Origin: an uncultured Ruminococcus sp.
GTDB taxonomy: Bacteria; Bacillota; Clostridia; Oscillospirales; Ruminococcaceae
NCBI GenBank assembly: GCA_900315755.1
Contig: ONAI01000013.1
Location: 1-33,957 of the forward strand
Reading direction: 5' to 3'
Length of the DNA: 33,957 nt
Below are positions 3,525-14,014 of this stretch, one piece after another. Made by a program: the position numbers and the translations under genes. The notes beneath the pieces are model-generated. The model was not told the origin of the DNA and ran no database searches. It saw only the letters and a program-made list of their open reading frames with translations. Each line of letters starts with the position of its first letter. The first letter of the stretch is position 1.

Positions 3525-5471
3525 TTACAGTTTCTGATACCTTGCCATAAGCGACATAAGATCGTATTTGCACATATCGGGCAATTTCTTCATTAGCTCT
3601 TCCTGCGTAACAATACACGGATTTCGTCTGAAGCGGTCACTTCTTTCATCGCATCTCCAGCCGATAGAAGCCATGTAGCAGCACCAGCGGCGGTGTTCGA
3701 GGGATGCAAGCGAATATGCAAAGCTGTCCTTTTTGATCTGTTCGAGCAGTTCCTGTTCAGTACCGTTCATGCGCCAAGCCTTACCGGTATACTGCATGAT
3801 CAAGCCTGACGGACCAAGAAGCTGTTCAAGCTTATTTTTGAGTTCAACGCCGTTTTCGGCGGCGAGTCTTGGGATAATATCGTTTTTTACCTCATCATGA
3901 TACGCAGCAGCCTTGCTTGAAAGTCTGCGGAAAAGACGTATTTTGTTCCATTCCTTTTCCGCATCAGCATCAGAATTATCAGCTGTACCCGTATCGTCCG
4001 CAGAGATAATGGAGATGTTGTTGTAGAAGTGGTTGTATTCCTTTGCACGTTTGTCTATCTCGCGGTTGATTATCATATCGAGAGTGATAACACAGCTTCT
4101 GTCGTCGATGAGTGAGACATCAGCAAGGAGTCCAAAAGCGTCAGAGATATATCCTGCCAGACGGCGGTCGGAATCCATTCGCATGAGTATCGGTATATGA
4201 GCAGAATGTTCGCAGAATATCTCCTCTATCTGCATCACGCAGTTGACTGAAAGGTCAACGTCCTCAAGGGTGATCACAGCATAGGTGTAGGGATCAGTTT
4301 TTGTGTTCTGACGGATATGATTGTAGAAATCGTTGTACTTAGCGTTCATGGAGTAGAAATTTATCTCCATATGACCGTCGGCGGCAGAACTCTTCATAGT
4401 AAGCTTTGTGTCCGAAAAATCGAAGGTATCTTCACTGAACTGGTTCATGAAGATGTGCTTTTTAGAGTCTATTTCGGGATCTGCAACGTCTATTACTATA
4501 CGGTTGCACTCATGGACAACTCCGAGGTTCATAGCCTGCAATACAGCTTCCATTCCGAGTGTTCCGAGACCGACTACAAGCAGATGAACATTCCAGTCAT
4601 GCAGGGGCGTATCGCTGTTTTTATAGACCGTATGCAGTGGTATTTCGCTGTACATTTTGTGTATCTGCATTTCAGGCAGTCCGATGAGTTCGAGGTCGAA
4701 GAAAGCCTCAGTACCGGACGTTTTGTCGTAGTATTCAGCGATAAGGCGGCTTATGCCGTCCTCTTCGCAGCGGCATGAGATCTTTGCGCCGCCCGGAAGC
4801 TTTATACGTGACGGATCATCCGCTTCATTGAGTCTGAAAAGCTGTAACAGGGAGAAATTGCGTATTGAAGAGTCCTCGAACAGGATCACATTCTTAGCTT
4901 TTTCAGCGTATATCTTTTCAAGGAGATCCGGCAGTTCCGATTCATTAGCTTTCAGAACGTCGATCATATGCAAGATATAGCCCTTTTTGTTCAGGCGGTA
5001 GAACTCATCCGCAGCAATATTTTCGGCAGTTATGATGTGTACACAGTTCTTTTTCAGATCAATGCTTTTGTTATTGCGCAGCATCGACTTCACATCGCTG
5101 TTATAGCCGAAGATCAGGATATGTTCGCAGTTTTTTCCTCTTCGGAAGTTGATTATAAGGCGAAGTATCCTTTCAAGGAATTTGTACATGAAAGAGATCG
5201 TACAGTAAGGTGCAGTGAACACTGCGATACAGTAAAGATAACCGACTGATTTGTTAAGGATAGTTGGTTCGCTGTTCATGTAGCTCACAACGTCCTTTAT
5301 CGTAACAGTGGCTTTGAAGCCGAAAGCATTGATGCTGTTCTGGAGTACGAGAAGCAGCTTGAAAAACAATTCATACGAGCTGTAATACAATGCACCCTGT
5401 ACAGTGGCGATAAAGAACGACAATATCGCTAATATATAGAGAAAACGAGGTTTATTGTCCTTGCTTTTCAT
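3525..5471 (-). CDS. Membrane protein with two TrkA-N-like Rossmann domains and a C-terminal RyR-like domain
   Basis: The protein has 648 residues. Hydrophobic segments at about 9-30 and 76-100 make a small N-terminal membrane unit with a possible extra half-helix at 34-50. A Rossmann-like strand with FGYNSD follows at about 117-125. A second has a clear dinucleotide-binding glycine motif, VVGLGTLGMEA (299-309). The last 65 residues hold ASLEHRRWCCYMASIGWR, which matches the LEHxRW core of bacterial RyR domains. The layout resembles K+ channel proteins with RCK/TrkA-N domains, but no TVGYG-type selectivity filter is visible, so channel function is unproven. Its ATG overlaps the TGA of the TIR gene (ATGA), with GGAGG 8 bases upstream inside that gene, so translation is probably coupled. 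In known families RyR domains are thought to sense nucleotide-type ligands; a signal-sensing partner of the TIR protein is inferred. Confidence 0.72.
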   Translation of the reverse strand: MKSKDNKPRFLYILAILSFFIATVQGALYYSSYELFFKLLLVLQNSINAFGFKATVTIKDVVSYMNSEPTILNKSVGYLYCIAVFTAPYCTISFMYKFLERILRLIINFRRGKNCEHILIFGYNSDVKSMLRNNKSIDLKKNCVHIITAENIAADEFYRLNKKGYILHMIDVLKANESELPDLLEKIYAEKAKNVILFEDSSIRNFSLLQLFRLNEADDPSRIKLPGGAKISCRCEEDGISRLIAEYYDKTSGTEAFFDLELIGLPEMQIHKMYSEIPLHTVYKNSDTPLHDWNVHLLVVGLGTLGMEAVLQAMNLGVVHECNRIVIDVADPEIDSKKHIFMNQFSEDTFDFSDTKLTMKSSAADGHMEINFYSMNAKYNDFYNHIRQNTKTDPYTYAVITLEDVDLSVNCVMQIEEIFCEHSAHIPILMRMDSDRRLAGYISDAFGLLADVSLIDDRSCVITLDMIINREIDKRAKEYNHFYNNISIISADDTGTADNSDADAEKEWNKIRLFRRLSSKAAAYHDEVKNDIIPRLAAENGVELKNKLEQLLGPSGLIMQYTGKAWRMNGTEQELLEQIKKDSFAYSLASLEHRRWCCYMASIGWRCDERSDRFRRNPCIVTQEELMKKLPDMCKYDLMSLMARYQKL

Positions 5472-8400
5472 TCAGCAGCCTCCTGCACCTTTTCAGACAT
5501 CTTATCAAGGTATTCGCCTGCGGTCTGGATGAGCTGATTTGTGGTATAGATAGGGTACCAGCCGACTTTATCGCTGTACAGGTCGCTTGCATAGACGATG
5601 CTCTTTCCTGATGGTGCAGCCTGATAGCCGTCGATCTGATAGCGGCACTTGAATTTATCAAGGTCGATCAGCCATGCAACTCCGTTTTTCCAGATGACGT
5701 ATAAGTAGCCCTTATCAGCGGAAGCGGACACATTCAGACGTGCAGCGTCTTTGCCGTTCAGACCTGAAACGAGAGCATCACCATAGTCCTCAGGTGTGTC
5801 AAGCTTAAGCTTTCTGCCGGTATAACCGTTTGAGTTCATCTCATAGAGACCGGAATCACGGCAGAGAACACCGAAGGTATCATCGCTGAGCGGAATGACT
5901 GATAACGGCTCCTGCGAAGTAGAGGAAAGATCAACGGAATTGGTAAGTTCTCCTGTCTGAGCATTATAAAGCTTGACCGTGCGGTCGCTGAAGAATACTC
6001 CGATAGTATTGTCGTCCTGCCAGAACATTCTGTAAATGTTAAGACCGGTATCCGGATGACATTCAAGCGCAAGATTTGTATTTTTGCCGTTGACAGGATC
6101 ACGTACTTCTGCGATGAGCTTTCCTGATGAGCGCTCTTCGAGGAGTACAGCAGCCTTTCCGCTGCGGTACTCTGTATATTCGTCCAGAATGTCGAAATCA
6201 TCTTTATCAACGGTAGACAGCTTGACAGTCTTGTCAAGACCTACGTATGCTGCACTTCTTTTATCCTTCGGGATATAAACTGCACCGCCGCCGGCTGCAA
6301 ACAGCTTGATATTGTTCGGATCGAACTCAGGCGGATCAGCTATTTCCTCGCATACATCTGAGCCGGTTTTTAATATAACAAGCTTTTTCTCTGCTGCACC
6401 ATTAGGGTTGAATACTGCTGCGATGATTGAGGTGTTGTCGACGAATACAGCATCTGATAATGATAGATCTGTGAGAGCGCTTATCGCAGTGATCTCATCC
6501 TTATCAGAGTTATAGAAGTAATAATTGTTTTTTAACAGGTTGTTCTCGTTATACTTATTGTTTTCATACCATGTGGCGCTGACGAGTGCATAAGTACCAT
6601 CCGGAGATGTACTGATTATTCTGTATTTGTGGTCGAAATCATCGGCTTTGAGCTTTGTATAAGACGGATTCTCAGCAGTATACTGAATGTACGCTGTGCT
6701 TGAATAGCTTCCGGCTGTAACGTACTTGTTTCTGCTGTAACTGCAAAGATTGAATCCCATATTGAAATTCTGTGTACGGTAGGCTGAATTCTGGTTATCG
6801 CTGGCGGTATATGATGCAACGTTGAGCGTGTACTCGATACCGTCCTCGACAGTTATCATAATAAGACCTGTTCTTGTGAACGAAGTATCAACGATATGAC
6901 TGTCAAGAGTGATAGTTCTGATAATATTGCCGGTATCATAGTTGATGAGCACAATATCAATGTTTGTAACGATCGCAAGAATATCGCAGCCTGCACTGGT
7001 ATTTTCATTCTTAAAAAGAAATTTCTTGGCATCAGGAGTTATCTTCAGCTGCACTTCTGTGCTCCATTTTTCTTCAGATACGTCACTATCGAAGCGTCTA
7101 AGTGAGGTAAAGCTGTTGAGGGATTTGCTGGAGTTGAATGAAACGAGTGCATCATCATCAATGAAGCAGATGCTGCCGTTTGTAAGGAGATTTGCGTATT
7201 CGGGGCTGATTTCGATGCTCTTTTCGGATTCAGCAGCATCGTTGCTGAGAGTGTAGACGTTTATGCGGTTATCCTTATTGTTGTAAATGTAGAGCTTGTT
7301 GTTTTTAACGCACTGTATCTCGTTGTTGATTTCGAAATCATATGCGGTAGCGCCGAGAACTGAGAGATCGGCAGTAATAGTGATATTGCCTGTTTCGCGG
7401 TCGATGACTTCAAGGAGGATTCTTTTGCCGGCGATAGGTGTGCCGTCGGGCATGGTATTTGCTTCATGATATACACGCAGGATGTGTTCATCATCTTCAG
7501 CTATGCTGACATAGGAATACGCTTTATCAGAGGCTTCAGCGCACCATTTTACTTCACCGGTAGCGCCGTCGAGACGCCATACAGTACGGTCGGAATTGCA
7601 GATATAAACGTCGCCGCCTGTACCGGGTTCATCGTCTGTGAGGTTATGTACATAGTTTTTGTAGACCTTGCCGAGGACAGGGGTTATCTCATATGAAACG
7701 CTTCCCGGAGCACTTACATTTTTCATGACAGTGCCGGTCTTATCGGTATCAATATCTAAATAAGCGTCAAGACGGTTGGAGCTTTCCTTTTTGGAAGCGA
7801 ATTCAGGATCAGCCGGAGAGATCTTTTTTATGAGCTTTCCTGTTTCCGGATCCCAGAAGTAAACTCCGGTAGCGTCAGTAGATACGATCGACTTTCCGCC
7901 GCCCATGAATGAGATATTTTCAACAGCGGAATCATGTTTTAGTGCAAGACGCGGTATTATCTGCTCGCATCTGAACATTCCGAGCTCGCGTGAAAGGGCG
8001 TACTCAGCCTCAGGGATAGCAGGTTTGTCCTCGCCTTCCTTAGGGAGAGCGGCAACAGCCTTCTGAATAGCGGGGATGAGATCGCTCTCGCCGTAGTATT
8101 TTTCGGATTCGGCAGCAAGGTGACCTGCATTTTCAATGAGGAGGTCCTTGTTTTTCTTCTCGATCTGTTCATTTTTAGCCTCGATCTGTTCGTTCTTGTT
8201 CTTGATCTCGCTGTTTTTCTTATTGATAGTGACAGCAGAAACAAGACTGATAACGGTTATAACGGAAAGGACTCCCGAAACGAGACCAAAGACTTGCATC
8301 CTTCGGCGGGCTTCACGTTTTTTCTCACGCTGGTAGAGGTCGTTGAAATCGCATCCGATAAGAGGCGCAGCTATTCTCAGGTATTCGGTGTTGAGCTTCT

Positions 8401-8881
8401 TCATGGACTCTTTCAGCGTATCAGCCTTGATATTCGCAGCAAGAGGCTCTACCTCTACCTTTACCTTGACTTCCTGACCGTTCTCATCGGTCGTAGTGAC
8501 TTCGTTGTATTGCAGAAGCTCCGGAAAGGCTTCCTTAGGCTCTCCGGCAACGAGAAGTGTAATGATGTTCTGATTAGTATTGCCATGGAGCTCGCGGAAA
8601 CGCACGAGTTCCTGCATACACCATTTTGATTCTGTGTATTTAGGGGAGCATATCACTATCAGGTATTCTGAATTCTCGATCGCGTTGCGGATGTCCTCAC
8701 TCAGATCGGAGCTTGTCTGGAGTTCGGAAACATCGCGGAAGATACGCCAGTTTCCTTTTTCTTTACCGAGATTCTTCGGAGGTTTGTATGATTCAAGCAG
8801 TTTCTGGAGTTTTTCTGCTGCTTGCATATCAGGTTCGAGATGACGGTAGCTTATAAAAGCTTTATACTTATAATCGCTCAT
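5468..8881 (-). CDS. TIR-domain protein with transmembrane helix, coiled coil and large beta-propeller-like region
   Basis: The product has 1137 residues. An N-terminal TIR domain starts with YKAFISYRH (6-14), continues with WRIFRDVSELQTSSDLSEDI and has SKWCMQEL (86-92), where Glu91 sits at the position of the catalytic glutamate of NAD-cleaving TIR enzymes. The extension RIAAPLIGCDFNDLYQRE (169-186) is typical of this TIR class. A membrane helix spans about 196-219, then a charged coiled coil at 220-252 (repeats of NEQIE and KNE). From about 290 to the end there are many beta-strand repeats such as YFWDPETGKL, like WD40/YVTN propellers. No NTPase module is seen, so it is not a classical STAND protein. 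ATG 8881 is preferred over the TTG at 8929, because the predicted promoter places transcription start near 8928. It is the first gene of a two-gene operon. NADase activity is inferred from the motif, not shown. Confidence 0.8.
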   Translation of the reverse strand: MSDYKYKAFISYRHLEPDMQAAEKLQKLLESYKPPKNLGKEKGNWRIFRDVSELQTSSDLSEDIRNAIENSEYLIVICSPKYTESKWCMQELVRFRELHGNTNQNIITLLVAGEPKEAFPELLQYNEVTTTDENGQEVKVKVEVEPLAANIKADTLKESMKKLNTEYLRIAAPLIGCDFNDLYQREKKREARRRMQVFGLVSGVLSVITVISLVSAVTINKKNSEIKNKNEQIEAKNEQIEKKNKDLLIENAGHLAAESEKYYGESDLIPAIQKAVAALPKEGEDKPAIPEAEYALSRELGMFRCEQIIPRLALKHDSAVENISFMGGGKSIVSTDATGVYFWDPETGKLIKKISPADPEFASKKESSNRLDAYLDIDTDKTGTVMKNVSAPGSVSYEITPVLGKVYKNYVHNLTDDEPGTGGDVYICNSDRTVWRLDGATGEVKWCAEASDKAYSYVSIAEDDEHILRVYHEANTMPDGTPIAGKRILLEVIDRETGNITITADLSVLGATAYDFEINNEIQCVKNNKLYIYNNKDNRINVYTLSNDAAESEKSIEISPEYANLLTNGSICFIDDDALVSFNSSKSLNSFTSLRRFDSDVSEEKWSTEVQLKITPDAKKFLFKNENTSAGCDILAIVTNIDIVLINYDTGNIIRTITLDSHIVDTSFTRTGLIMITVEDGIEYTLNVASYTASDNQNSAYRTQNFNMGFNLCSYSRNKYVTAGSYSSTAYIQYTAENPSYTKLKADDFDHKYRIISTSPDGTYALVSATWYENNKYNENNLLKNNYYFYNSDKDEITAISALTDLSLSDAVFVDNTSIIAAVFNPNGAAEKKLVILKTGSDVCEEIADPPEFDPNNIKLFAAGGGAVYIPKDKRSAAYVGLDKTVKLSTVDKDDFDILDEYTEYRSGKAAVLLEERSSGKLIAEVRDPVNGKNTNLALECHPDTGLNIYRMFWQDDNTIGVFFSDRTVKLYNAQTGELTNSVDLSSTSQEPLSVIPLSDDTFGVLCRDSGLYEMNSNGYTGRKLKLDTPEDYGDALVSGLNGKDAARLNVSASADKGYLYVIWKNGVAWLIDLDKFKCRYQIDGYQAAPSGKSIVYASDLYSDKVGWYPIYTTNQLIQTAGEYLDKMSEKVQEAAE

Positions 8882-9437
8882 TGTTCCACCCATTTCATAA
8901 TTGAAGTTGTACTGAGTTATGCTCAGCAACTATTATTTTAACATATTCTGCATTATTTTGCAATAGGAAAAAGTATTATGCAATGGAAATATGTACAGCA
9001 GGGACGAATTTTTAATGAGAAAAATTTACACTATATTTTTCTCTGTGCATCTTGAATTTTTTGTATCAATATGCTATTATATATATAATAAACCCTCGGA
9101 TGCACTCAAATCAGTATATTCAGCTTTGCATAAATACCTTCTCAAAGCTGTTTGCAGCAAATACATCAGCTGATATTCTACCATTTTATAATCATATCGC
9201 TCCTTTGAGAAAAATCGAAGGAGTATAGTTTTACTAAAAATTTTTTCAACCAACAGTATTATAAAAGCAACAAAATACAAGAGGTGTTGGTTATCATTAA
9301 CATTCCGGTTCGTTAAATCGGACGGGGAAGAGTTAGTTGTATATTATGAGAAAGATACAACAGTCAGTAATTTATTATCATAATATGGCGGTTTCCGGAT
9401 TACTCGCCGGATATATCGTGTGGAAAGAGGAATTTGG
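8882..9437. other. 556-bp gene-free region between the divergent TIR operon and STAS gene
   Basis: The region is AT-rich and has no convincing gene. It holds the TIR promoter and leader (8882-8963), a 10-bp perfect palindrome ATCAGCTGAT (9165-9174), an inverted repeat with arms AACCAAC (9248-9254) and GTTGGTT (9286-9292), and an inverted repeat CTCCTT/AAGGAG near 9200-9223. A 40-codon open frame at 9346-9468 overlaps the STAS gene start and has no well-placed ribosome binding site. The signals could be regulatory for the plus-strand gene; none was recognised as a known RNA. Confidence 0.5.
8935..8963 (-). promoter_or_regulatory. Predicted promoter of the TIR operon
   Basis: On the minus strand, TTGCAA (8963-8958) lies 17 bp upstream of TAAAAT (8940-8935). 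Transcription would start near 8928, leaving about 47 bases of leader before ATG 8881. A short hairpin, CTGAG-CATAA-CTCAG, falls inside this leader. The -35 box is weak (4 of 6). Confidence 0.5.
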
Positions 9438-10631
9438 ATGGATTTTTCAACAGCTAATCACAAGTTGACAATTTACCTTAAAGGAAGCTTGGATTCTGCA
9501 CATTCAGACAGGATCGAAAAAAGTGTAAGAGAGATATGCGATGATAACATCGGGCTTCCGCTGGTATTTGATATGTGCAGAGTTGATTATATATCGACCG
9601 AAGGCATCAGAACTCTGCTGAGATTCAGAAACTCGGATGATGAGAAAATTCATGTCATAAACGTATCTAACAGCTTATACGAACTCTTCATGGCAGGCGG
9701 TTCGGGGGATATGTTCGAGATACGCCGCAAGCCGCGTACTCTGTCGCTGAAAGGGCTTAAACTTGAGGCAAGCAGCGATTCGATAAAGCTTTACAGAGTT
9801 GACGAATATTTCTGGCTGAAGGTCAATCTGAAGAAGAATACCATTGATGATATTGATAATGAGAATATTATTGCGCGTTCAGCGTTCATAAACGGCATAC
9901 CGGCAGAAATTGCCTATGAGATAGTATATACTGAGGAGGGCTGCGGTCAGCTTTACGAGCTTTCGGATGCACATATGCTTGCAGCTGCACTCTATCTCAA
10001 TCCTGATAAGATAAGCTACTATACCCGCGTTTTCGCCGGATTTATGAAGGATGTACACTGCACTGAAATGGAAGGCGCTGATTTGCCGGATGCTAAGAGA
10101 GAATTGCAGTATGCGCTTGAAAAATCAAAGAAGTATTTTTCCGAAGAAGACTATAACATGATGTATGATCTTCTTGCAACTATACCGGATAAGAACACCT
10201 TCCTTTACGGTGATTTCGATACTGAGGGAATAATGCTGAAATACGGCTCTCCGTTCTTTGTGGATTTTGCAAATGCCCATGTTGGACATCCTGTTTTTGA
10301 TCTCGCCGATATTTACATAGCCTACTGTATGAACGAGGAAGATACCTCAATGCTTACACTTAACGGAAGCTGGTACGACGGAACAGGCTTTACGGATGAT
10401 ATGCGCGAATCGCTTTTCCGGACTTTTATTTCCGAGTATTTCCCGTGCAGTGAAGAAATAAGGCATAAGCGCGTAGAGTTCATAAGAGGGATAGCTTATC
10501 TCAAGCTTATACTTGCGCCGGCTGTGGACAACGAAACGGTAACAGAGGAAATGATGAAGCCTCACAGACGTTTTGCAAGGATGTACCTGATGAACGATGT
10601 TTATGATCTTATAGGCAAGCTTGATTTCTGA
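9438..10631 (+). CDS. STAS domain fused to an aminoglycoside-phosphotransferase-like kinase domain
   Basis: The start is ATG 9438, with AGAGGA 7 bases upstream; the in-frame GTG at 9420 has none. The product has 397 residues. Residues about 1-95 look like an anti-sigma-factor-antagonist (STAS) domain: LVFDMCRVDYISTEGIRTLL carries the usual D/S/xEGxxxLL pattern. The C-terminal half resembles APH/choline kinase folds, with YGDFDTEGIML where families have HGDLHxGNIL, and FVDFANAHVGHPVFDLADIY matching the IDxxxAxxGxPxxDLA metal-binding segment. The Brenner histidine is Tyr and the conserved Asn is Gly, so activity may be altered or lost, although both catalytic and metal Asp positions remain. It probably acts in a phosphorylation-linked signalling switch in the cytoplasm, with unknown target. 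It is transcribed alone. Confidence 0.72.
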   Translation: MDFSTANHKLTIYLKGSLDSAHSDRIEKSVREICDDNIGLPLVFDMCRVDYISTEGIRTLLRFRNSDDEKIHVINVSNSLYELFMAGGSGDMFEIRRKPRTLSLKGLKLEASSDSIKLYRVDEYFWLKVNLKKNTIDDIDNENIIARSAFINGIPAEIAYEIVYTEEGCGQLYELSDAHMLAAALYLNPDKISYYTRVFAGFMKDVHCTEMEGADLPDAKRELQYALEKSKKYFSEEDYNMMYDLLATIPDKNTFLYGDFDTEGIMLKYGSPFFVDFANAHVGHPVFDLADIYIAYCMNEEDTSMLTLNGSWYDGTGFTDDMRESLFRTFISEYFPCSEEIRHKRVEFIRGIAYLKLILAPAVDNETVTEEMMKPHRRFARMYLMNDVYDLIGKLDF

Positions 10632-12625: not shown

Positions 12626-12664
12626 TCATAGCATTTTGACACAGATTTGTCAAGTCCGGAGCGG

Positions 12665-12693
12665 TTGACATTTTCAATGGAATGTGGTAGAAT
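12665..12693 (+). promoter_or_regulatory. Sigma-A promoter of the M23 peptidase gene
   Basis: A perfect TTGACA (12665-12670) is followed by a 17-bp spacer and TAGAAT (12688-12693). Transcription should start near 12700, which rules out a start codon at 12647 and fixes ATG 12725, preceded by AGGGGA. Confidence 0.8.
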
Positions 12694-12724
12694 TTTAATA
12701 CAAATTGTAAAACAGGGGATAATT

Positions 12725-14014
12725 ATGGTGAAAAAATTTATAGGAACAGTGATCGCAGCTGTTTCAGCGGCAATGCTGATAATACCGGAGATTTCACATT
12801 CTGCGGTTTATAGCGCGTCTGCGGCGGATGTTACCGCCGTCTGGCCGCTGTCGTCGGATTATACCGAGATTACGACAACTTTTGATCCCGGACGCAACGA
12901 AGAGGATGGTACCGGACACAACGGTATTGACATCCCTGCACCGCAGGGAACTGACATCCGGGCAGTGCGCGGCGGCGAGGTAGTCCTCGCTGAATGGCGT
13001 GACGGCTACGGGAATATGATCGTCATACATCATGCTGATATAGGCGTTTACACTTTCTACGCCCACACGAATACTATCGACGTTGTTGAGGGCGATGATG
13101 TGTCACGAGGTGAGACCATAGCAACAGTCGGCAATACCGGTGCCTCATACGGCAATCATCTTCACTTCGGTATATGTGATACGCTTATCAACGGCTGGCC
13201 GGATGTAACCTTCTTTGATCCGCTTACGTATTTTGAATATACTGATGCGGATGTTCCGGACATCCCTCATGATGTTTGCAATTGCACAGACGATTATGCA
13301 GGCATATACAGAGTAGTTGACGTTGATGATTACCTCAACATGAGAAGCGGTCACGGAGTTGGCTTTTCGTTGGTAGGCAAGATACCGGCAGGAGCTGAGG
13401 TCAGGGTAACGAAGGCGGACGGCTCATGGGCGCACGTTGAGTACGAGGGCGTTACTGGTTATAGTTCGATGTATTACCTTGAAAGGATAGAACTTCCGGA
13501 GAGCGGAATGAAAATTGATGCTCAGACCGTGCCGCCGGAAAAGCATATGTGCGGCGACTACTTCTATGTTAAGGGCATTATTACCTCTAATCTACCGATA
13601 AAGAGAGTATGGGGCGGAGTCTATACAACTGATAATGTACCTACTGATGTATACTGCGAGGACACTCCGGATACAATCAGTTATGACCTTTCAGCTTATT
13701 TCGATTATCTTCTTGAATTTGACAAGCTTCCGGAAGGGGAGTACATTTACCGTATCGAAGCTGAGGATTCAGAAGATAACAAGTATGTGCTGATCGAATC
13801 GGGATTTAAAGCGGAGCTCATACATCCGGCAGGTGATGCCGACCTCGACGGTGAACTTACTATCGCAGATATTGTGACCTTTCAGAGCTTTCTCCTTGGA
13901 AAGTCTGAACTCAACCAAAAGCAGTACAAATATACCGATATGAACGGCGACGGTAAGTGCAACGGATATGATCTGATCTTGTTAAAGCGTGAATATTTTG
14001 GAAAAATGGCATAA
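12725..14014 (+). CDS. Secreted M23 peptidase with SH3 domain and C-terminal dockerin
   Basis: The product has 429 residues. A signal peptide covers about 1-34 (MVKKFIGTVIAAVSAAMLII). The LytM/M23 zinc metallopeptidase domain has His65 and Asp69 (HNGID), FYAHTN and HLHFG (His145, His147), the complete zinc and catalytic set for cleaving peptide crosslinks in peptidoglycan. A bacterial SH3 domain follows (about 193-252, LNMRSGHGVGFSLVG, typical of wall binding), then an Ig-like beta-sandwich (about 258-365). The last 60 residues form a type I dockerin with duplicated calcium loops, DADLDGELTIAD and DMNGDGKCNGYD. The dockerin implies docking on a cohesin of the cellulosome or cell surface, unusual for a wall peptidase. 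Start selection follows the promoter and ribosome binding site. Confidence 0.9.
   Translation: MVKKFIGTVIAAVSAAMLIIPEISHSAVYSASAADVTAVWPLSSDYTEITTTFDPGRNEEDGTGHNGIDIPAPQGTDIRAVRGGEVVLAEWRDGYGNMIVIHHADIGVYTFYAHTNTIDVVEGDDVSRGETIATVGNTGASYGNHLHFGICDTLINGWPDVTFFDPLTYFEYTDADVPDIPHDVCNCTDDYAGIYRVVDVDDYLNMRSGHGVGFSLVGKIPAGAEVRVTKADGSWAHVEYEGVTGYSSMYYLERIELPESGMKIDAQTVPPEKHMCGDYFYVKGIITSNLPIKRVWGGVYTTDNVPTDVYCEDTPDTISYDLSAYFDYLLEFDKLPEGEYIYRIEAEDSEDNKYVLIESGFKAELIHPAGDADLDGELTIADIVTFQSFLLGKSELNQKQYKYTDMNGDGKCNGYDLILLKREYFGKMA

What the first reader, a model, noticed from the sequence alone, without database searches (positions are those of the whole stretch)
3525..8881. Two-gene TIR-propeller plus TrkA-N/RyR membrane module: candidate immune or NAD-signalling system
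The sequence shows an ATGA-overlapping operon. The first protein has a TIR domain with Glu91 at the catalytic position, a membrane helix, a coiled coil and a large propeller-like region. The second has two membrane segments, two Rossmann domains (one with GLGTLG) and a C-terminal RyR-like LEHRRW domain. TIR enzymes are known to cleave NAD or make cyclic ADP-ribose-type signals, and RyR and TrkA-N domains are thought to bind nucleotides. A model in which the TIR enzyme makes a signal that the RyR/Rossmann protein reads at the membrane is plausible and, as far as I know, not described for this pair.
Basis: partly seen in the sequence, partly recalled or inferred. Interest (0 to 1): 0.8.

Follow-up and report, generated by a model that had tools for sequence, protein, structure and literature searches.

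The report
TIR receptor paired with RyR-domain channel
A rumen bacterium carries a two-gene unit that probably works like a small immune circuit: a membrane-anchored TIR enzyme with a sensor head makes a signal from NAD, and a partner membrane protein built like a ligand-gated ion channel with a ryanodine-receptor domain reads it.

Summary
P1 (5468-8881, minus) is a TIR domain with Glu91, a membrane helix, a coiled coil and a double WD40-like propeller. P2 (3525-5471, minus) starts in an ATGA overlap; it has two membrane helices, two Rossmann (RCK-like) domains and a C-terminal RyR domain. A P2 profile hits only RyR domains in the PDB; its model best matches tandem-RCK channel gating rings.
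P1 lies directly upstream of P2 at 25 of 25 fetched loci, mostly in different surroundings. Of 26 carriers among 100 genus genomes, 24 have both genes, 23 adjacent. A Fusobacterium record has the same pair in order; a Butyrivibrio plasmid has a probable one. More widely, 13 of 34 Pfam-RyR loci have a TIR gene within 5 kb (0.25 expected).
TIR (82%) and RyR (81%) are strongly conserved; the propeller diverges (43%).
Best reading: a Thoeris-like NAD-signalling pair with a RyR/RCK membrane reader. A 2026 preprint shows phage RyR domains bind or cleave 2'/3'cADPR. Not shown: NADase activity, ligand, channel function, phage defence. No defence-island context was seen. My ten library searches found no paper describing the pair.

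The parts
5468..8881 (-). P1, TIR-TM-coiled coil-double propeller protein, 1137 aa, stop included
8495..8857 (-). TIR domain of P1 (Pfam TIR_2, aa 9-129)
8609..8611 (-). codon of Glu91, the predicted catalytic glutamate (24 of 24 and 11 of 11 aligned rows, window included)
8237..8293 (-). membrane helix of P1, aa 197-215; the N-side is at least as positive as the C-side in 24 of 24 rows, suggesting TIR inside and propeller outside (weak)
8087..8221 (-). coiled coil of P1, about aa 221-265
   Evidence: helix 215-264
5552..7966 (-). double WD40-like propeller of P1, about aa 306-1110; fastest-diverging part
5468..5471 (-). ATGA overlap of P1 stop and P2 start; spacing -11 to +13 nt at 25 of 25 relatives
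3525..5471 (-). P2, 2TM-RCK-RCK-RyR protein, 648 aa, stop included
5136..5453 (-). membrane part of P2, aa 7-112: TM1 7-29, helix 35-48, invariant QNSINAFGFK 44-53, TM2 71-86 and on, linker helix 93-112 (model pLDDT about 50)
4602..5135 (-). first Rossmann/RCK-like domain, about aa 113-290
4017..4601 (-). second Rossmann/RCK-like domain with VVGLGTLG, about aa 291-485
3528..3758 (-). RyR (R12-type) domain, aa 572-648; H593, W596, N617, D637 each in 26 of 26 aligned rows

Best explanation
The operon is a two-protein NAD-signalling circuit that works like Thoeris with a different reader. P1 is a membrane-anchored receptor: its diverging propeller detects a stress or invader cue and activates the TIR domain, which turns NAD+ into an ADP-ribose-type signal, most simply 2'- or 3'-cADPR. 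P2 reads that signal with its RyR domain; binding is passed through the tandem RCK-like ring to the two-helix membrane part, which opens or disrupts the membrane and halts growth. Shown here by sequence or model: the domains, the operon-like arrangement, the conserved pairing, the general RyR-TIR neighbourhood, invariance of the key TIR Glu and RyR His/Trp, the RCK-type fold. Inferred, with my odds: TIR is an active NADase 0.85; RyR binds the TIR product 0.65; propeller outside the membrane 0.6; P2 conducts ions 0.5; the purpose is phage defence 0.5.
For: Pairing: P1 homologue directly upstream at 25 of 25 loci, spacing -11 to +13 nt, mostly different outer neighbours. Genus: P2 in 25 of 100 genomes, P1 in 25 of 100, both in 24, same contig, strand and spacing in 23 (own genome included, largely the same assemblies). 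Same pair and order in a Fusobacterium vincentii record (P2 profile over positions 74-640, E 2.8e-21; TIR-TM 3.4e-61; both against the ORFs of that stretch only) and probably on Butyrivibrio plasmid pNP243. General link: 13 of 34 Pfam-RyR loci in 30 Bacillota genomes have TIR_2 within 5 kb, 11 within 1.5 kb, 0.25 expected. Co-occurrence of RyR and P1-type TIR in the class draw: 12 of 26 RyR genomes against 2.5 expected, p=3e-7; by genus 6 of 19 against 1.4, p=0.001. Constraint: TIR 82% and RyR 81% median identity against 43% for the propeller. Chemistry: phage RyR domains bind or cleave 2'/3'cADPR (PMC13232231); the H75 and W78 equivalents hold in 22 of 22 rows that I chose. Fold: tandem-RCK channels, 7vm8 1.8e-7, 4gx0 2e-6; 13 of the 22 matches at E<=0.001.
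Against: No assay. RyR is below Pfam's cut-off in P2. The phosphate-binding His100 of RyDEP is Asn617 in 26 of 26; the D117 column holds Cys in P2, and D637 is its counterpart only if the loop is shifted. No canonical potassium filter; the membrane part is modelled at pLDDT about 50, TM-scores to the RCK channels are 0.25-0.46, and 9 of 22 fold matches at E<=0.001 are other proteins. The TIR part of the P1 model is poor. P1 occurs without P2 in G230, beside a DHH gene; P2 without P1 in G291; apart in G211. 21 of 34 Pfam-RyR loci have no TIR within 5 kb found on the contig, and most class genomes with both RyR and P1-type TIR have them at different places. Of 8 plasmid records with a P1-like TIR, two have an RyR-type partner, two more that I opened show none by eye, four were not opened. 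No defence-island neighbours. Narrow spread of close relatives: 2 of 197 family genomes, 1 of 398 phylum genomes, the own genome included in both.
Confidence: 0.55

Rival explanations
1. P2 is a brake or sponge: its RyR domain binds or cleaves the TIR product, as phage RyDEP does, and so limits P1, which is itself the NAD-depleting effector.
For: RyDEP cleaves and some of its homologues sequester 2'/3'cADPR (PMC13232231). His593 and Trp596 are invariant.
Against: A brake needs no membrane helices or RCK ring; both are conserved at about 70%. Asn at the His100 position and an uncertain D117 counterpart argue against cleavage. This does not exclude a sponge.
Confidence: 0.15
2. P2 senses NAD(H) or a nucleotide through its RCK-like Rossmann domains; TIR-driven NAD loss itself gates P2 and the RyR domain has a structural role.
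For: Tandem Rossmann/RCK domains with GLGTLG; GsuK among the best fold matches. That RCK domains bind nucleotides is recalled, not from a call.
Against: RyR is the most conserved part of P2 (81% against 69-73%). RyR domains also sit by TIR genes without an RCK pair, as small RyR genes of about 100 aa.
Confidence: 0.15
3. The pair is a stress or potassium-homeostasis signalling unit, not an immune system.
For: Flanks are ordinary genes, no defence island. In genus g131 a shorter 2TM-RyR gene sits like a core gene: a related upstream neighbour in 4 of 4 genomes and the same downstream neighbour in 3 of 4, with P1-type TIR genes elsewhere in the genome.
Against: Patchy presence (25 of 100 in the genus), changing places and a fast-diverging propeller resemble conflict systems.
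Confidence: 0.3
4. The pairing is only common descent in one group, with no functional link.
For: The scan with P2, which finds close relatives only, returned 25 loci of which 22 are titled Ruminococcus; wider searches found almost none.
Against: The two genes stay together while their surroundings change; the same pair in Fusobacteriota; RyR-TIR neighbourhood 13 of 34 against 0.25 expected.
Confidence: 0.04

Closest known systems
Thoeris types I and II (ThsB TIR plus ThsA or other effector)
   Same: Two-gene unit; a TIR enzyme plus a second protein with a nucleotide-reading domain; a P1-type TIR gene elsewhere is paired with a SLOG-like membrane gene (SLOG sub-threshold in Pfam)
RyDEP, phage RyR-domain anti-Thoeris protein (PMC13232231)
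   Same: RyR (R12) domain; the His and Trp of the cADPR pocket are conserved
   Different: Stand-alone phage protein against defence; P2 is a host membrane protein in a TIR operon; Asn in place of His100
Tandem-RCK ligand-gated channels: GsuK, DMI1/CASTOR, Slo1
   Same: Two RCK-like domains behind membrane helices; best Foldseek matches
   Different: No canonical filter motif; C-terminal RyR domain added; TM-scores only 0.25-0.46
DUF4062 TIR-like NADases of STAND proteins (Swarozyc; PMC13174449)
   Same: A Sinorhizobium meliloti DUF4062-NB-ARC-TPR gene overlaps a TrkA-N/RyR gene: another NADase-like enzyme, same kind of reader
   Different: Different enzyme and sensor; DUF4062 just under cut-off (23.6 against 24.7 bits), RyR under cut-off (18.2 against 27.4)
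Animal Toll-like receptors (recalled) and Apaf-1
   Same: TIR inside with a sensing ectodomain, if the predicted topology is right; Apaf-1 among the fold matches of the propeller part
   Different: No LRRs, inverted domain order, enzymatic rather than scaffold TIR (predicted)

Membership tests
TIR domain, NADase type | Pfam TIR match over cut-off | tested here: met
   TIR_2 52.1 bits, cut-off 28
TIR domain, NADase type | catalytic Glu | tested here: met
   Glu91 in 24 of 24 and 11 of 11 rows; PDB matches include plant TIR proteins
TIR domain, NADase type | NAD cleavage | not testable with these tools
   needs assay
RyR / R12 domain (PF02026) | Pfam match over cut-off | tested here: not met
   15.7-15.8 bits on C-terminal fragments, cut-off 27.4
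RyR / R12 domain (PF02026) | profile similarity to solved RyR domains | tested here: met
   9 of 9 PDB hits at E<=1 are RyR, best 5.3e-6
RyR / R12 domain (PF02026) | ligand residues H75, W78, H100, D117 of RyDEP | tested here: inconclusive
   H and W conserved; H100 is N; D117 alignment-dependent
Thoeris type I or II | ThsA-type partner with SIR2-SLOG or Macro domain | tested here: not met
   no Pfam (E<=0.1), NCBIfam or PADLOC (E<=0.01) match in P2
Thoeris (any type) | TIR signal plus dedicated reader in one operon | tested here: inconclusive
   operon-like spacing and conserved pairing met; signal untested
Thoeris (any type) | phage defence | not testable with these tools
   needs phage challenge
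Tandem-RCK ligand-gated channel | two RCK domains | tested here: met
   by model only: Foldseek 7vm8, 4gx0, 6o7a, Slo1; two Rossmann units
Tandem-RCK ligand-gated channel | pore with selectivity filter | tested here: inconclusive
   two helices with a helix between, low pLDDT, no canonical TxGYG in the sequence

The most novel reading that the evidence does not exclude
A bacterial ion channel gated by a TIR-made cADPR isomer through a ryanodine-receptor-type domain: P1 is a Toll-like transmembrane receptor (propeller outside, TIR enzyme inside) and P2 a RyR-RCK channel that depolarises the cell. This would be a prokaryotic counterpart of cADPR-RyR signalling, with enzyme, sensor and reader modules shuffled across phyla (TIR or DUF4062; propeller or NB-ARC-TPR; RyR-RCK or SLOG-like membrane protein).
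Probability: 0.3. Interest if true: 0.95.

Novelty: new variant of a known kind. Interest (0 to 1): 0.78.

Why it matters
Whether cADPR acts directly on ryanodine receptors is an old question (recalled); the 2026 RyDEP preprint shows that RyR-type domains bind cADPR isomers but studies them as phage counter-defence. A host operon that joins a TIR enzyme to an RCK-type membrane protein ending in a RyR domain would give the host side of that chemistry. It would also add a channel-type effector to TIR signalling, and offer a small, testable bacterial model of a RyR-gated membrane protein.

Tried and rejected
Chance association: rejected; 13 of 34 RyR loci against 0.25 expected and changing surroundings. 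That estimate takes only RyR-positive genomes and assumes TIR genes are placed at random; clustering of defence genes would raise the expectation.

Defence island: 84 of 123 neighbour proteins (up to two per side of the loci; one search listed up to three) scanned against PADLOC at E<=1e-10. Of 62 families matched, the 25 shown are led by mad3 (5 of 84), mad8 (3 of 84) and then families matched by one member, mostly UvrD-helicase models. No system-specific signature. P1 itself matches PADLOC only weakly (PDC-S66, ThsB).

Cysteine content as a topology test: uninformative, since secreted-like proteins at these loci are about as Cys-rich as others (median 1.29% of 20 and 1.51% of 56; P1 propeller 1.18%).

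Empty-site test: failed, because the flanking STAS-kinase gene is not in the other 89 of 90 genomes searched. hhalign of A1 against a two-row alignment gave only a partial match. Phage records: no P2 relative. Promoter scan: 13 sites against 12.2 by chance.

Rows dropped: L025 (P2 in two frames) left out of A1 and A3; L008, L010, L012, L018 left out of the P1 alignments A2 and A4 (P1 in two frames at L010 and L018, cut by the contig end at L012; at L008 my simple ORF picker preferred an antisense ORF). The distance comparison used the 21 loci present in both A1 (26 rows) and A2 (24 rows). The RyR residue alignment used 5 of 26 P2-family rows, 15 ORFs chosen from the RyR loci, the G211 protein and human RyR1.
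Full report
WHAT IS THERE. On the minus strand, 8881 to 3525, two genes overlap by ATGA. P1 (1137 aa) has a TIR domain (TIR_2 1.1e-13) with Glu91 in SKWCMQE, a membrane helix (aa 197-215), a long helix or coiled coil, and a large mostly-beta part. The AlphaFold model (mean pLDDT 72; TIR part poor) matches WD40 proteins such as SSU-processome subunits and Apaf-1, which I recall carry two propellers. P2 (648 aa) has two membrane helices, two Rossmann domains and a C-terminal RyR-like domain. Whole P2 matches nothing in Pfam at E<=0.1 or in PADLOC and NCBIfam at E<=0.01; only C-terminal fragments reach RyR at 0.017-0.018, below cut-off.

FOLD OF P2. With 25 sequences the model has mean pLDDT 73 and pTM 0.70; the membrane part is about 50. 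Its best PDB matches are ligand-gated channels with tandem RCK domains: MtDMI1 1.8e-7, GsuK 2e-6, CASTOR 3.8e-6, Slo1 6.1e-6, at TM-scores of 0.25-0.46. Of 22 matches at E<=0.001, 13 are such channels and 9 are others, mostly glycosyltransferases and S-adenosylhomocysteine hydrolase. A family profile against all PDB sequences gave 9 hits at E<=1, all RyR domains: RyR1 chimera 5.3e-6, RyR3 and bacterial putative RyR 0.01-0.4. So the RyR assignment is sound, though distant. TM1, a helix, an invariant QNSINAFGFK stretch, TM2 and a linker helix resemble a two-helix pore, but there is no canonical potassium filter; that P2 conducts ions is inference.

CONSERVED UNIT. A scan of GTDB genome contigs with P2 (close relatives only) returned 25 loci: 12 titled Ruminococcus flavefaciens, 10 other Ruminococcus, 1 Anaerotruncus, 2 Oscillospiraceae. 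P1 lies directly upstream at 25 of 25 (in two frames at L010 and L018, cut by the contig end at L012). Spacing of P1 stop to P2 start is -11 to +13 nt at all 25. The outer neighbours are mostly unique; they are shared only within a few close sets. In 100 genomes of the genus, own included, P2 occurs in 25 and P1 in 25; 24 have both and 23 have them on the same contig and strand at the same distance. These are largely the assemblies (contig lengths agree), so the two counts are not added. Exceptions: G230 has P1 followed about 80 nt later by a DHH-family gene and no P2; G291 has P2 only; G211 has both on different contigs. In G211 and G291 the divergent P2 (44% identity in G211) lies convergent to another TIR gene. 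Outside the genus close relatives are rare: 2 of 197 family genomes and 1 of 398 phylum genomes, the own genome included in each.

BEYOND THE GROUP. Fusobacterium vincentii NZ_CP084075 has a 1018-aa TIR-TM-WD40 gene and, 3 nt later, a 608-aa relative of P2 matched over profile positions 74-640 (E 2.8e-21 against the ORFs of that stretch). Pfam does not call its RyR. On Butyrivibrio plasmid pNP243 a TIR-propeller gene is followed 320 nt later by a 604-aa gene with hydrophobic N-terminal stretches, Rossmann motifs and an RyR-like EHLRW, read by eye; this is weaker (16.6 bits to the P2 profile, no Pfam RyR). Of 8 plasmid records with a P1-like TIR, these two have such a partner; two others that I opened (a Sinorhizobium, a Novosphingobium) show none by eye; four were not opened. 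In Sinorhizobium meliloti a TrkA-N/RyR gene (6.3e-15; RyR 0.003, below cut-off) overlaps a DUF4062-NB-ARC-TPR gene (DUF4062 6e-5, just below cut-off). DUF4062 is reported as a TIR-like NADase (PMC13174449: start of abstract in the listing and passages).

RYR AND TIR IN GENERAL. PF02026 was found in 6 of 299 genomes drawn from the phylum and 26 of 391 from the class, 30 distinct genomes. Their 38 matches form 34 loci; 13 have a TIR_2 match within 5 kb and 11 within 1.5 kb, 0.25 expected for random placement; 21 have none within 5 kb. The RyR genes involved include small ones of about 100 aa and a 578-aa protein. Pfam misses P2 itself, so these loci are independent of the window's close family. 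P1-type TIR-TM genes occur in 37 genomes of a 391-genome class draw that appears to be the same one. RyR genomes have them in 12 of 26 against 2.5 expected (p=3e-7); by genus 6 of 19 against 1.4 (p=0.001, counts entered by hand; genomes of one genus are not independent). In most of these 12 the two genes are not neighbours. P1-type genes also have other partners: among 34 distinct stretches that I fetched (61 matches are listed), 11 have a DHH-DHHA1 gene beside them and 2 a SLOG-like membrane gene (some stretches are short; the SLOG Pfam match is sub-threshold and only two of the DHH proteins were run against Pfam). Two 80%-identical 2TM-RyR genes (G504, G390) lie next to another gene with a SLOG-like TGHR motif (Pfam gives no SLOG there). 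SLOG is the cADPR reader of ThsA (passages of PMC12948488 and PMC9503650). So TIR receptor, RyR reader and SLOG-like gene occur in all three pairings, the SLOG label being tentative.

CONSTRAINT. Median pairwise identity is 82% in the TIR, 85% in the segment after it (aa 131-195), 81% in the RyR domain, 69-73% in the rest of P2, 43% in the propeller. Propeller distance is 3.3 times the distance in aa 1-195 and correlates with P2 distance (r 0.93, 21 loci; shared ancestry contributes). This is what a diverging sensor with a fixed signal chemistry would give.

CHEMISTRY. PMC13232231 (results text and figure legends read; passages; methods not read) reports that phage RyR domains cleave or bind 2'/3'cADPR, with H75, W78, H100 and D117 in the pocket. 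In my alignment of 22 chosen rows the H75 and W78 equivalents are present in 22 of 22. H100 is His in 10 of 22 and Asn in P2. The D117 column holds Asp in 11 of 22 and Cys in P2, while the invariant D637 of the KYD motif is the likely counterpart if the loop is shifted. P2 is therefore more likely a binder than a glycosidase.

TOPOLOGY. The N-side of the P1 membrane helix is at least as positive as the C-side in 24 of 24 rows, which favours TIR inside and propeller outside; both sides are positive, so this is weak.

PRINT. Ten searches of the open library found no paper on a TIR plus RyR/TrkA host pair. The main text of PMC7159879 holds neither RyR nor TrkA (find). A 2015 survey by Burroughs and colleagues of nucleotide-centred conflict systems, which I recall but could not find in the library, may list such neighbourhoods; that would lower the novelty.

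VERDICT. A Thoeris-like TIR signalling pair with an RyR/RCK membrane reader is the best reading; signal, gating and purpose remain to be shown.

Noticed in passing
L146, L157, L158, L160, L161, L162, L163, L165, L170, L176, L071: TIR-TM-propeller genes of Clostridia lie beside a DHH-DHHA1-type gene of about 490-520 aa at 11 of 34 fetched stretches: a second recurrent partner, perhaps a signal phosphodiesterase.
   Followed up: partly
L155/L174 and L169: TIR-TM-propeller gene followed by a SLOG-like membrane gene (TGHRD) in two genomes of one genus.
   Followed up: partly
L111, L114, L115, L116, L118, L119, L120: Stand-alone RyR genes of about 100 aa within 1.2 kb of TIR matches; in G798 and G863 a second, larger RyR protein lies beside them.
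   Followed up: no
L181 2548-7130: Sinorhizobium meliloti plasmid: DUF4062-NB-ARC-TPR ORF (annotated start lies further downstream) overlapping a TrkA-N/RyR gene.
   Followed up: partly
window 9420-10631 (+): STAS domain fused to an APH-like kinase domain; not found in the other 89 of 90 genus genomes at E 1e-60, though present beside the pair in L004.
   Followed up: partly
window 12647-14014 (+): M23 peptidase with SH3 and dockerin domains, a cellulosome-type cell-wall enzyme.
   Followed up: no
L177, record NZ_CP084075.1: Labelled a plasmid but 2.1 Mb with one annotated feature; probably a chromosome.
   Followed up: no
L010, L018, L025: P1 (L010, L018) or P2 (L025) lies in two frames; decay or assembly error. 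Left as found.
   Followed up: no
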